Shown piece after piece: positions 21,019-28,771 of a stretch of DNA of 64,000 bases; positions within the stretch are counted from its first letter, which is position 1; the number at the start of each line of letters is the position of its first letter. The DNA is from Chiridota heheva (lineage: Eukaryota > Echinodermata > Holothuroidea > Apodida > Chiridotidae): the NCBI GenBank assembly GCA_020152595.1, contig JAIGNY010003294.1:767501-831500 (forward strand). The letters are read 5' to 3'. The notes beneath the pieces were generated by a model. It ran no database searches. It was not told the DNA's origin and saw only the letters and a list, made by a program, of their open reading frames with translations. A program made the translations under genes and the position numbers.

Positions 21019-22013
21019 TTTACTTCAAGTTATACCTTACCTTCCATGCTATAATATGCAATCTGGTCACACGACCTGATTCTAACGCACTTCTAACCGA
21101 ACCTAAAAAACGCAGTAACCAGCCAAGCCCTGACCTCCATAATACCTCTGTACCACCTCACTCTTTTTCAGCGCGTTGTTTCACTAACATCGCTGAAAAC
21201 TGGTCACTTTTATTTTATTTTTAATTAACCTTTCTAACTCTTTTCTCTTCGGCAGCTTCTACCTGAAGGGTTTTTACGCTGCCCGTTCTCATCTGGCTCG
21301 CCTTTTCAAGTCTTCCGAGAGAAGGGTGAGATAGCCATGGGTCCGAGATTTCTTCGGCCGACCTACACGACTTTACCCGTGTAGCCTACACTTAGGATAG
21401 CGGGTTTTTGTCTCCATTCGTACATAGCGAGTGGCTAGTTCGAGAGTGTCCTACTCTCGTGGTGGGTGTTTTAGGTCCTAGAGCACAGGTTGTGCCTGTC
21501 TAGGGGACCTCTCGCCCCGGGAATTAGTCTTTTTCTCCCTTAGCCCCACCCGCCTCGAGGTGACCCTAGCGTTATACTATGTATAGTGTTTAGCACGTTA
21601 GGATATTTCAGTACACCTTCTTTTTCGATTTTGGCGCATGCGCATTGGGTCATAGTCACCGCTGGGTAAATGTGGGGTCGCCCTGTAACAACTCTAGGGA
21701 GCTACAGTTGTTACTAGCGAGCTTATTTTCGTTTTCACGTTAACAGCATATGAGTATTTTTATTTTTCTCACACAGTTTTGAGATAAAATATTTAATTTT
21801 CAGGATTGAAATTGGGGTGTCGGAGAGACCGTGGGTGGGTCTCTCCGACGACCTAATTACAGGGGAAATAATCTTTCCTTTTATCTTTACAAACCTCAAG
21901 TAACACAGTGGTTGGTGTTTCCCACGCTACCCCGGCGCTAGTAAAGTCATTACGTTGGATGCGTTTTCTCGGGTTTCTAGAGTTTTTCAGATAGAAAATT
22001 TTTTGGTTTTAAA

Positions 22014-22311
22014 TTTTTTTCTGTTAAAGCAAGTGTTGTTGTTCTGTTTAGAATGCTATGCCTCGTCTCTCTTTAGCGTGTCCGTAAGATCATAGTTACT
22101 TTGCCGTGTTTAGGTTTGTACGCTTGGACTTACGTTCTTCTCTTAAGAAATTTATTTTTCAGTAAAAATTGTTTCTGTTTAAGAGAGTTTTGATGTTCTG
22201 TTTAGACTGCTAGGCCTCGTCTCTCTTTAGCGTGTCCGTAAGATCATACTTACTTTGCCGTATTTGTGTATGTACGCATGGATATATGTTCTTCTCTTTT
22301 CAGATATAAAA
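22014..22311 (+). repeat. Direct repeat of about 150 bp inside element copy A
   Basis: Two copies share 'gttctgtttaga', 'cctcgtctctctttagcgtg', 'tccgtaagatcata' and 'tactttgccgt'. They start at about 22014 and 22164. The same pair is at 44340-44632 in copy B, so it predates the copying of the element. Confidence 0.88.
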
Positions 22312-22423
22312 GAGATTCACTGAGAAGGTTACGCTCTTAGAGGCGTTGCGCCTAGAGCGGTAACGGTAAGAGAGAGAGATAACCTCTTAGGGGCGTTAAC
22401 GAACGTCGCCTAAGTTGTAAACA

Positions 22424-22680
22424 CGGTTCCAAACGGTTCCATTGGACAGTCCCTGTCGATTCCACAACCCTTGTAATGCGTTGAACGCTGGTTGTTGTGA
22501 GTCCGGGGACGGTTCCAAACGGTTCCATTGGGCAGTTCCTGTCGATTCCACAACCCTTGTAACGCGTTGAACGCTGGTTGTTGTGAGTCCGGGGACGGTT
22601 CCAAACGGTTCCATTGGACAGTCCCTGTCGATTCCACAACCCTTGTAACGCGTTGAACGCTGGTTGTTGTGAGTCCGGGG
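22424..22680 (+). repeat. 86/87-bp tandem repeat, three copies, inside element copy A
   Basis: 'cggttccaaacggttcc' starts at 22424, 22510 and 22597. Each is followed by 'cctgtcgattccacaaccc' and 'gaacgctggttgttgtgag'. Copy B keeps one full unit (44761) and one shortened unit (44997), so unit number changes quickly. Confidence 0.9.
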
Positions 22681-26200: not shown

Positions 26201-26700
26201 CCTCCGTATTTCTTACGGCCTCAGTTTATATATATTTTACCTATTCTCAACGGAACGCGTACTGTGTACTTCTTCCCTACGCGTCGCCACTTACTCGGTG
26301 GCCCCGTGGTGAATAGAGGTATCATGAGATAACGACTCACGTTACAGGTGTAGTACGTTCACGCTATCGTGGACCTAGACGGTCCTTTGGTACTGATAGC
26401 TACTTCGTTCGGGACACGTACCAGTACCAGTTGTCCCCTCGCGTAGCCACGAGCTTTTGCTCCGTGGTGCACAGCGACATCGTTGGCGGTGGACTCGTGG
26501 TTTTTACTTGTCATGCTGACGCCTTTGTAGACCCATAACGGATCTATTATACTTAACGGGGTTGCGTACTTTGTACGGCGTAAGTCCCCCCAGTAGCCAC
26601 GCGCTTTTCCGCTCCGTGGTGCAGGGTGTTTAACGGTCCGTGTAGTATACACAGGACGTCACCTCTTTCGTGATTTCTACCCCAGTGTTGGGGTTTATGA
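23206..26700 (+). repeat. Array of diverged large cassettes in element copy A
   Basis: A composite unit recurs in changing lengths. Its parts are a 'taacgtacactgtacgg'-type palindromic start; 'ccggttatacgcccactagc'; 'ggtcaggtgacag'; 'aagtatagcat'; 'ccattagctacgcagttcca'; 'gcgttgaacgttac'; 'caccagtatcatggac'; 'ggacaggtcc'; and 'gcgtgcaaacgcttctt'. The 'gttgaacg' landmark falls at about 23401, 24248, 24752, 25028, 25528 and, weakly, 25757, and similarity drops from left to right. From 25860 onward the units reduce to 'gtagccacg...gctccgtggt' hairpins. No coding frame is convincing. Confidence 0.72.
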
Positions 26701-28502
26701 CTCATACGGTTGACGTAGTACGTTACCCCTACTTGTCAATATTACCTCCATGAAGGATATTTTCTTGACCATAGGTGGCCTTTTGGTAGACAACCTTACG
26801 TTTGGGGTAGCTATTACCAACAACGGCACGTATGGTTCCTTCCATACTTTAACACCTTACAGCTGCTTCCTTGCGGTTTTACGGCCTGTTACTTAACTGC
26901 CCGTACAGACATACGGTATTCGTTTTCTCCGCGCCCGTAGCCGTAGGGCTCCGCGGTTTCAAGGTTGTTACTATACGTAGTACGTTAACACTTTCTCCAG
27001 TCAACTTCTTAGACAAGTTTCGCTGTTGATAGGCGTGGCCTGGAGCTACGCGGTCCCGCAACTGCTACAGTTTTCGGACCTCGCTTGGGTGCCGTCGACT
27101 ATGTTGTACGGCTCCGCGGTCTTACGACCCATGCCGTCTCACCGCTACATAGCCTTACACGGTTGGCAGCCCTTCTTGTATACGTTTTATATTAACGGCC
27201 TGCCTTTTGTTTCGCTAGCCTTTGATTTTTGGTCAGTCGGTTTCAACAACCTTTGCTTAGGGTCGGCAGCTTTTTCTGGGCTGCGGATGGTGTCGTTCAG
27301 TCCCTCCGCTTTACACGTTCAGTCGGTGGTCACACCCTTTGGTGGTGGTGCGGGTGCTCCCACCTGGTGTACGGAGCGAAGTTTTCACCCGTCAGATATC
27401 ACCGTCGGTGCCGACGGGGGCTTCTTGATCAAGGTCGGGGCACTTTTCTTGTGACCCCTTTGGCTGCTCATGCCCTTGCAGGCTTCACGTACGGGCCTCG
27501 GGTCAGGGACGATTTTTTGTCTCTTTCCCGGGCTCCGGCGGACTGCATCTCAGTCCCGGAGCGCTTCGTTTGATGGTGTGGCCTCGGCCCGCCTTTCCTC
27601 GACGTAGCATGGCTTTTCTGAGGGGTTGGTCGCCCTCCCCATTGTGGAGGTGGGCCCTCTCTCAAGCTTAGTTCCGTCATGCGCTCTGGGATTACTTGCA
27701 GCTATCCACCAGGGTTTTTCCAGTGGGGTCTACGGTCTTTGACTCGCGACCACTGGTAAGTTCTGGGAGATCTCTTCGTAGTGTGTCATGTGACATTTTC
27801 CTCCAAAAGATCATCCAGTGGCTTTCTTTTCAAGTAGTCTGAACTGTTCATCGAACGGCCGCGGTATGCACTCGGGTTCGGGGCATACCCTCTTTTCACG
27901 GGATCTCTCGTGCCGCCGTTCGAGCAACCGCTTTTTGCGGTTTTTCTCTTGTTTTTGGTCTGACTCACTTTTCGACGTTCGTGTTCCCCCGCTAACTTTA
28001 GCTCTTACGCGGTTATGCGCTAACGAATTTTTCCCTTGTCCGGGATTTCTTCAATTCGTTTTCGTTGGTACACGCTTCGTTCCCAATCGTAGTTTCCTCG
28101 CCGGTTCTGTCTCGTGGACGAATCCGGTGTGACTTGTGGCGTTTTTTGTAAGCACTTTGCTGTAATTGTGTCCGAACGCTCTTCCGGTTGGCTTGTTTTT
28201 CTGGGCTTTTCGCTCAGGTTCTTTCGAGGTTTGCCTCCGTTACTGTCAATGAATGGTGCCTTGTTCGGTTTGACTGTACCTCGCCGTGGTTTCCTATGTT
28301 TTAGTTCTTCCCACTCTTGAGGTCTTTCATCCTTCCGAGGTGAAGGAATTTCGTCCTTTAAACGGGATTCGGTTCGTGTGAGTTTTCGTACCAGCCATTA
28401 AAAAAAAAAATGTGCGGCGATCTGAACTCCCTTCCTTCCTATCCTCGGTTGCAATCTGATTGCATATTATAGCATGGAAGGTAAGGTATAACTTGAAGTA
28501 AA

Positions 28503-28771
28503 TTTACCCCGCTAAGCGTAGCGGGGATATTTACGAGAGTTATACTTACCTTCCATGCATCCCGCCCGCCTCCCCTCTCGTTCAGGCCTCGGTGGAATGT
28601 TGAGTGAGGTGGTACAGAGGTATTATGGAGGTCAGGGCTTGGCTGGTTACTGCGTTTTTTAGGTTCGGTTAGAAGTGCGTTAGAATCAGGTCGTGTGACC
28701 AGATTGCATATTATAGCATGGAAGGTAAGTATAACTCTCGTAAATATCCCCGCTACGCTTAGCGGGGTAAA
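28503..28771 (-). mobile_element. Mini-element abutting copy A, perfect 56-bp TIRs with hairpins
   Basis: It starts TTTACCCCGCTAAGCG immediately after the last base of the large element and ends with the exact complement. Within each TIR, CCCCGCTA and TAGCGGGG form an 8-bp stem around AGCG. The inner right part (about 28604-28735) is the inverted left end of the large element, including 'cctgattctaacgcac' and 'cagccaagccctgacc' in reverse complement. So it is a related but distinct short family member. Its right side runs into TA-rich DNA. Confidence 0.85.

What the first reader, a model, noticed from the sequence alone, without database searches (positions are those of the whole stretch)
21019..28771. 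7.5-kb non-coding TIR element present twice, both times inside a (TA)n tract
Seen: two same-orientation copies (21019-28502 and 43335-50890) have perfect 45-bp TIRs and the same internal block order. Each is bounded on both sides by TA repeats, while the DNA beyond the TA tracts differs. No frame resembles a known transposase, integrase, polymerase or capsid protein. Inference: a large non-autonomous DNA transposon, or an element moved by an unfamiliar route, with a strong preference for TA microsatellites. A 7.5-kb cargo with no coding frame is much longer than ordinary MITEs.
Basis: partly seen in the sequence, partly recalled or inferred. Interest (0 to 1): 0.75.

Follow-up and report, generated by a model that had tools for sequence, protein, structure and literature searches.

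The report
Long coding-free transposon in TA repeats
Two nearly identical 7.75-kb pieces of DNA with mirror-image ends and no recognisable genes sit in TA-repeat tracts in or near one gene, and much of their inside looks built by repeated duplication; they are most likely unusually large passenger transposons, akin to small TA-repeat-loving ones known in plants.

Summary
The repeated unit is 21017-28771 and 43333-51157: a 7.5-kb body with 46-bp perfect inverted ends, fused without spacer to a 269-bp piece carrying an inverted copy of the body's left end (135 of 136 columns). Both copies lie in (TA)n tracts, same orientation; flanks beyond the TA are unrelated. Outside the tandem and rearranged stretches they differ at 88 of 6316 columns (1.4%). 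Six read-through frames of copy 1 match no Pfam family. The body is 52% GC, CpG o/e 1.25-1.29 (flanks 0.59-0.91). From 22.4 kb rightward, internal duplicates fall from about 98% identity to 72-76% near 26 kb, then none. Copy 2 lies between two arrestin C-domain frames, so the host is a eukaryote, probably an animal.

Best reading: a recently moved, non-autonomous, foldback-like TIR transposon resident in TA microsatellites, with a satellite-like interior. It works like plant Micron/MuTAnT/SaTar elements, but membership is unproven: no transposase, no visible TSD, and the own-genome search did not complete. Local copying through TA tracts is not excluded. A structured-RNA reading was tested and not supported.

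The parts
20725..21019 (.). (TA)n tract left of copy 1
21018..21063 (+). left 46-bp terminal inverted repeat, copy 1
21017..28502 (+). copy 1 body (A): no recognisable coding, GC 0.515, CpG o/e 1.25
22011..22298 (+). separate 154-bp duplication (about 86%), left of the tandem front
22423..23201 (+). young tandem front (units of about 86, 61, 53 and 43 bp); length differs between copies
23208..26149 (+). degenerate duplicated modules, identity falling left to right
28458..28503 (-). right 46-bp inverted repeat of the body, copy 1
28503..28771 (-). adjoining 269-bp piece (B) with 56-bp inverted ends; ends contain hairpin CCCCGCTA-agcg-TAGCGGGG; carries inverted copy of body left end
28771..28965 (.). 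(TA)n tract right of copy 1
42692..43335 (.). (TA)n tract left of copy 2 (interrupted; 89% matches)
43333..50890 (+). copy 2 body (A)
   Evidence: the composition figures used 50887 as its end
44693..45988 (+). tandem front of copy 2, longer and differently arranged
50891..51157 (-). adjoining piece (B), copy 2; 262 of 262 aligned columns identical to copy 1 in the last alignment block, with 2 gaps
51157..51679 (.). (TA)n tract right of copy 2
41609..41914 (+). frame with start of Arrestin_C (likely exon), upstream of copy 2
   Evidence: E 1.6e-5, 25.7 bits, below Pfam's cut-off of 27.7
52114..52326 (+). frame continuing Arrestin_C (likely exon), downstream of copy 2, so copy 2 is probably intronic
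   Evidence: E 7.8e-5, 23.5 bits, below Pfam's cut-off of 27.7
30543..30839 (+). frame with the later part of Arrestin_N (profile 84-143 of 148), downstream of copy 1
   Evidence: E 6.8e-13, above cut-off

Best explanation
Each copy is one recently moved, non-autonomous, TIR-bounded DNA transposon of about 7.75 kb living in a TA microsatellite. Its left end and the inverted copy of that end on the 269-bp right-hand piece give the whole unit about 130-bp foldback-like inverted ends. A transposase made elsewhere (not seen) would recognise these ends and put the unit into TA tracts, where the target duplication is invisible. The interior carries no recognisable genes. Much of it is a satellite-like filler that arose by repeated duplication, mostly at a front near 22.4 kb, older modules lying further right and decaying. 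Shown: the anatomy, low divergence (1.4% substitutions outside the tandem and rearranged stretches), TA flanks, unrelated outer flanks, the gradient, no Pfam match. Inferred: transposase-driven movement, TA targeting rather than TA-mediated copying, and the direction of growth.
For: Exact boundaries at inverted ends with unrelated flanks beyond TA in both copies. Composite inverted ends 99.3% over 136 columns. 88 of 6316 columns differ outside the tandem and rearranged stretches. No Pfam match in six read-through frames of copy 1. Duplication gradient within the range I chose (22.33-27.07 kb and its counterpart): Spearman of position against best self-match bits -0.90 (copy 1, 32 windows) and -0.88 (copy 2, 35 windows); against identity -0.87 (24 matched windows) and -0.45 (26 matched windows). 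TA-resident, non-autonomous TIR elements, some joined end to end, exist in plants (PMC5907723 passages and one section; PMC4486113 abstract and two sections).
Against: Only two copies, both in one locus and the same orientation. No transposase and no visible target duplication. No relative by exact patterns in IMG/VR (TIR, hairpin tip, two interior patterns) or GTDB contigs (TIR, hairpin tip), nor by blastn of the whole unit in phage and plasmid records; these are prokaryote and virus collections, so this says little. The two tips of the whole unit differ (TTTACTTC against TTTACCCC), which is unusual for a cut-and-paste unit. Patchy divergence (a 669-column run without a substitution, p 0.0035; and 154 of the 1000 aligned columns that were left out differ) suggests conversion or recombination. 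The identity gradient in copy 2 is weak (-0.45, p 0.022). A duplication of about 86% at 22.0-22.3 kb lies left of the front and outside the gradient test.
Confidence: 0.6

Rival explanations
1. TA-mediated copying: the unit together with some TA was copied from one TA tract to another by homologous recombination, gene conversion or a circular intermediate, without a transposase acting at the second site.
For: Both copies in one locus, same orientation, both inside TA; body and 269-bp piece occur joined at the same base in both; patchy identity. A circular-intermediate recombination model was proposed, as speculative, for plant SaTar elements (PMC5907723, section read).
Against: TA interruptions next to the unit are not shared between the copies, read by eye (weak, since microsatellites change fast). 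The unit must still have become TIR-bounded somehow.
Confidence: 0.25
2. Filler capture: extrachromosomal DNA was taken up at breaks in fragile TA tracts by end joining, as suggested for florendoviruses in plants.
For: Florendoviruses are often flanked by (TA)n, with empty TA sites in related species (PMC4241990 passages). Base composition here is unlike the flanks: GC 0.515, CpG o/e 1.25.
Against: Both copies end at the same bases with inverted ends; random capture would more often give ragged, truncated ends. No viral or coding trace.
Confidence: 0.08
3. The element makes a long structured RNA that is kept by selection and defines it.
For: Folding is tighter than shuffles (mean z -1.05 to -1.21 over both copies and strands, against -0.20 and -0.21 in flanks). 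Watson-Crick hairpins of 6 bp or more: 21 observed against 7.1 expected in the three non-tandem parts; in the left part stems with G-U are also in excess (13 against 8.2, sd 2.1). By eye, some hairpins recur with paired changes.
Against: Structures predicted from one module alone keep pairs changed on both sides no better than control: over 5 modules and 2 strands, at least 74 of 300 controls reached the observed count each time; the kept fraction exceeded control in 5 of the 10 tests and fell below it in 5. No G-U excess in the modules (20 against 19.4), right part (10 against 9.2) or tandem part (5 against 7.4). Conserved columns not significantly clustered over M1-M5 (four measures, p 0.13 to 0.62). 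Few sequences, so low power.
Confidence: 0.04

Closest known systems
SaTar elements of guayule and rice, including rice Micron (non-autonomous MULEs in microsatellites)
   Same: Non-autonomous, TIR-bounded, often flanked by (TA)n, many without a visible target duplication, unrelated elements linked or fused end to end.
   Different: Those are about 0.4-1.9 kb and in plants; here 7.75 kb, probably in an animal, with a graded interior; no MULE transposase or 8-11-bp duplication seen.
MuTAnT of Medicago truncatula
   Same: Foldback-like modular ends, TA microsatellites, some insertions in introns and near genes.
   Different: Short, 218 copies, an element with a mudrA-like transposase frame known, 9-bp duplications in the few copies outside perfect TA; none of this could be looked for here.
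Tetris / DAIBAM foldback pair of the Drosophila virilis group
   Same: Modular element without coding capacity, with internal tandem repeats that vary in number, plus a small MITE sharing its ends (compare body A and piece B).
   Different: Tetris tandem repeats lie inside long TIRs (to 1,735 bp) and it has 8-10-bp duplications; here the array is internal and one-sided. TA targeting is not mentioned in the abstract and the one section that I read.

Membership tests
SaTar/Micron/MuTAnT (TA-targeted MULEs) | flanked by (TA)n on both sides | tested here: met
   2 of 2 copies
SaTar/Micron/MuTAnT (TA-targeted MULEs) | terminal inverted repeats | tested here: met
   46 bp, and about 130 bp for the whole unit
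SaTar/Micron/MuTAnT (TA-targeted MULEs) | 8-11-bp target duplication in members outside microsatellites | not testable with these tools
   no copy outside TA available; own-genome search did not complete (10 tries)
SaTar/Micron/MuTAnT (TA-targeted MULEs) | TIR similarity to an autonomous MULE transposase element | tested here: inconclusive
   no Pfam hit inside copy 1; rest of genome not searchable
SaTar/Micron/MuTAnT (TA-targeted MULEs) | non-autonomous members of about 0.4-1.9 kb | tested here: not met
   7.75 kb; the range is one reported, not a strict definition
Foldback (Tetris type) | long TIRs with tandem repeats inside them | tested here: not met
   tandem array is internal and one-sided at 22.4-23.2 kb
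Foldback (Tetris type) | middle without coding capacity, modular ends | tested here: met
MITE | short (hundreds of bases) | tested here: not met
   whole unit 7.75 kb; piece B (269 bp) would qualify by size
LTR element / LARD | direct terminal repeats | tested here: not met
   the best matches of the two ends to each other are inverted; no direct match listed
Large DNA virus or Polinton-like element | coding genes for replication or capsid | tested here: not met
   no Pfam match in six frames of copy 1
Structured non-coding RNA | covariation between diverged copies of a stem | tested here: inconclusive
   no excess over control with five modules; RNAalifold on the same modules shows 8 of 47 pairs with changes on both sides

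The most novel reading that the evidence does not exclude
A lineage of coding-free replicons, probably in animals, that lives in TA microsatellites, moves as a fused foldback unit through TA-guided recombination, and grows in one direction from a fixed internal front, so that its interior is an ordered record of its own past duplications.
Probability: 0.1. Interest if true: 0.7.

Novelty: new variant of a known kind. Interest (0 to 1): 0.42.

Why it matters
If copies turn out to be dispersed, this would carry the TA-microsatellite 'safe haven' strategy, which I saw described for transposons only in plants, into another lineage and to an element several times larger than the non-autonomous members reported there. 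The duplication gradient would give an example of how a transposon interior is built from little but duplication and decay, and how transposons may seed satellites. The neighbouring arrestin gene gives a fixed place to look for empty sites.

Tried and rejected
Structured RNA: by eye the modules show recurring hairpins (CGTAC-NNN-GTACG, AGCGT-GNRA-ACGCT, GTAGC-CATTA-GCTAC) with seemingly paired changes. RNAalifold on five modules gave 47 pairs, 8 with changes on both sides; small sets gave 2 of 10 and 0 of 5. A test with structures from single modules showed no excess over control, so I dropped it as the main reading. Selection on motifs inside modules: conserved columns not significantly clustered over M1-M5 (p 0.13 to 0.62); one of four measures for M1-M3 reached p 0.027, and the four for M3-M5 lie at p 0.07 to 0.09. 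Known RNA families: none at gathering in the window, two matches with E 0.77 and 2.8 in the unit at relaxed threshold. tRNA: none. Coding remnants: no Pfam match in copy 1; a 104-aa frame had one word-sharing candidate and no scored relative. Phage and plasmid records: no match. IMG/VR and GTDB contigs by exact patterns: none. Host name: a 237-aa arrestin piece found three proteins without given names, which do not name the host; the frame 55945-56655 found nothing, and a PDB sequence search with 52114-52326 found nothing. An arrestin first exon upstream of copy 1 was sought in 14950-20651 and 28990-30491 in three plus-strand frames and in 3700-14500 in two of three plus-strand frames (one weak below-cut-off DUF3895 match, E 0.008) and not found, so copy 1's intronic place is unproven. 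A paper search on large non-autonomous elements found no papers.

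Full report
What is there. The window holds two copies of one unit, 21017-28771 and 43333-51157, in the same orientation. Each has a body A of 7.49 kb (copy 1) or 7.56 kb (copy 2) with 46-bp perfect inverted ends (in copy 1 21018-21063 against 28458-28503). The body is followed without spacer by a small piece B (269 bp in copy 1, 267 bp in copy 2). B has its own 56-bp inverted ends whose tips contain the hairpin CCCCGCTA-agcg-TAGCGGGG. B also carries the body's left end upside down: 21028-21163 matches 28736-28602 at 99.3% over 136 columns.

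Flanks. All four outer sides are (TA)n: 295, 195, 644 (interrupted) and 523 bp. Beyond the TA, the four flanks (1.3-2.0 kb each) share nothing beyond chance (lowest E 0.53). Five other TA tracts make up 1392 of 46763 bases (3.0%) of the rest of the window and carry no copy of the unit, so TA tracts are common here and occupied only sometimes. TA interruptions next to the unit are not shared by the copies (read by eye).

Age and patchiness. A global alignment gives 7074 identical of 7316 aligned columns. I then left out 1000 aligned columns in 22420-23215 (tandem front) and 27070-27680 (replaced stretch); these hold 154 of the 242 differences. In the remaining 6316 columns 88 differ (1.4%). One run of 669 columns has no substitution (p 0.0035 by shuffling), and in the last alignment block, which is piece B, 262 of 262 aligned columns are identical. 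Of 34 one-base indels, 29 lie in runs of the same base, so some may be sequencing error.

No coding seen. All six frames of copy 1 with stops read as X match no Pfam family at E 0.1; copy 2 was not scanned. Rfam finds nothing at gathering in the window. There is no tRNA. A 104-aa frame found no relative in a word-based search of 5.8 billion proteins. The body is 51.5% GC with CpG o/e 1.25; in copy 2 the values are 51.9% and 1.29. Eight flank stretches, some overlapping, have 32-42% GC and o/e 0.59-0.91. T exceeds A on the plus strand (2232 against 1400 in copy 1).

How the interior was built. Best self-matches (150-base windows of copy 1) fall from 98-99% at 22.4-22.7 kb, through 79-97% at 22.7-23.2 kb, 82-90% at 23.2-24.5 kb, 74-82% at 24.5-24.9 kb and 72-82% to 25.6 kb, to 72-76% near 26 kb, and vanish to the right until the end piece; four windows within this range have no match. 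Within the range that I chose (22.33-27.07 kb and its counterpart), position against match bits gives Spearman -0.90 (32 windows) and -0.88 (35 windows) in the two copies; position against identity gives -0.87 (24 matched windows) and -0.45 (26 matched windows, p 0.022). The tandem front differs in length between the copies. The simplest reading is repeated duplication mostly at a front near 22.4 kb with older modules decaying to the right; the direction is an inference. Against a single front, a duplication of about 86% at 22.0-22.3 kb lies on its left. A motif GTAC-N(2-4)-GT[A/G]C occurs 11 times in copy 1, all between 23.2 and 26.6 kb, which may be the last trace of the oldest modules.

Is it an RNA? 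I first thought so. Folding is tighter than shuffles (mean z -1.05 to -1.21 against -0.20 and -0.21 in flanks). Watson-Crick hairpins are in excess: 21 against 7.1 expected in three parts; in the tandem part 1 against 2.2; in four flank stretches 72 against 46.1. Stems with G-U are in excess in the left part (13 against 8.2) but not in modules (20 against 19.4), right part (10 against 9.2) or tandem part (5 against 7.4). Folding is about equal on both strands. Pairs changed on both sides are kept no better than control when the structure comes from one module alone (5 modules, 2 strands; at least 74 of 300 controls reach the observed count each time). Conservation along modules is close to random (with borderline values for M3-M5). 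I take the palindromes to be by-products of a repeat-rich, duplicating DNA; the power of these tests is low.

Where it sits. Frames with Arrestin_N (30543-30839, E 6.8e-13) and two parts of Arrestin_C (41609-41914, E 1.6e-5; 52114-52326, E 7.8e-5; both below Pfam's cut-off) lie on the plus strand. Copy 2 is between the two Arrestin_C frames and so probably in an intron. Copy 1 is upstream of the Arrestin_N frame, which matches only positions 84-143 of 148 of the profile, so an earlier exon should exist upstream, but none was found. The split gene says eukaryote; animal is an inference. The species is unknown.

Comparison. Plant Micron, MuTAnT and SaTar elements are TIR-bounded, non-autonomous residents of TA microsatellites, sometimes fused end to end; they are tied to MULE transposases, and target duplications are hard to see in TA (PMC5907723 passages and the section on targeting; PMC4486113 abstract, insertion-site and discussion sections). 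TAFT of maize is known to me here only through those papers. Tetris of Drosophila virilis is a foldback element without coding capacity, with variable internal tandem repeats and a MITE relative, DAIBAM (PMC4079207 abstract and one section). Arthropod MULEs of up to 10 kb with 13-1193-bp TIRs are described, with transposase genes (PMC13359780 passages). Florendoviruses in plants are often found in TA tracts, and break repair was suggested as the route (PMC4241990 passages). In penaeid shrimp, transposable elements were reported to carry SSR expansion (PMC7878876 passages), so TA tracts may also grow with or after an insertion. The full-text listings that I saw (20 of 265; 20 of 2913; 15 of 55; 13 of 13; 3 of 3; 1 of 1; 10 of 10) showed no title or abstract start describing an animal transposon family as TA-microsatellite-targeted; this is a statement about those listings only.

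Verdict. It works most like a TA-resident non-autonomous TIR transposon of foldback form (0.6). Membership in the MULE-based SaTar group is not established, because transposase, target duplication and other copies could not be tested, and its size lies outside the reported range. TA-mediated local copying stays a serious rival (0.25).

Noticed in passing
window 53023-54321: 43-bp satellite, 30 copies, 96% matches, consensus unit containing the hairpin CATTACG-atagc-CGTAATG; mean folding z -3.8 and -3.5 on the two strands.
   Followed up: no
window 32356-38320: 37-bp satellite of about 161 copies between the Arrestin_N and the first Arrestin_C frame, so probably intronic; it gives long spurious open frames.
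   Followed up: no
window 513-2438: 47-bp minisatellite, 41 copies, with strong C-over-G skew on the plus strand (GC skew -0.63 in bases 1-2000).
   Followed up: no
window 6772-7441: 65-bp tandem repeat (4.7 copies) directly abutting a 370-bp (TA)n tract; another repeat that ends in TA.
   Followed up: no
window 55945-57230: Two long overlapping open frames rich in Ser, Asn and Thr; the first has only a weak, below-cut-off Pfam match (WDR90 propeller, E 0.022), the second none, and the first found no homologue; possibly coding, near the arrestin gene.
   Followed up: partly
window 10593-10817 (minus): Frame reading RRRWRWIGYVMRM...TTWRRTVE resembles, from memory, the C-terminal end of a non-LTR retrotransposon of marine invertebrates; no Pfam match.
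   Followed up: no
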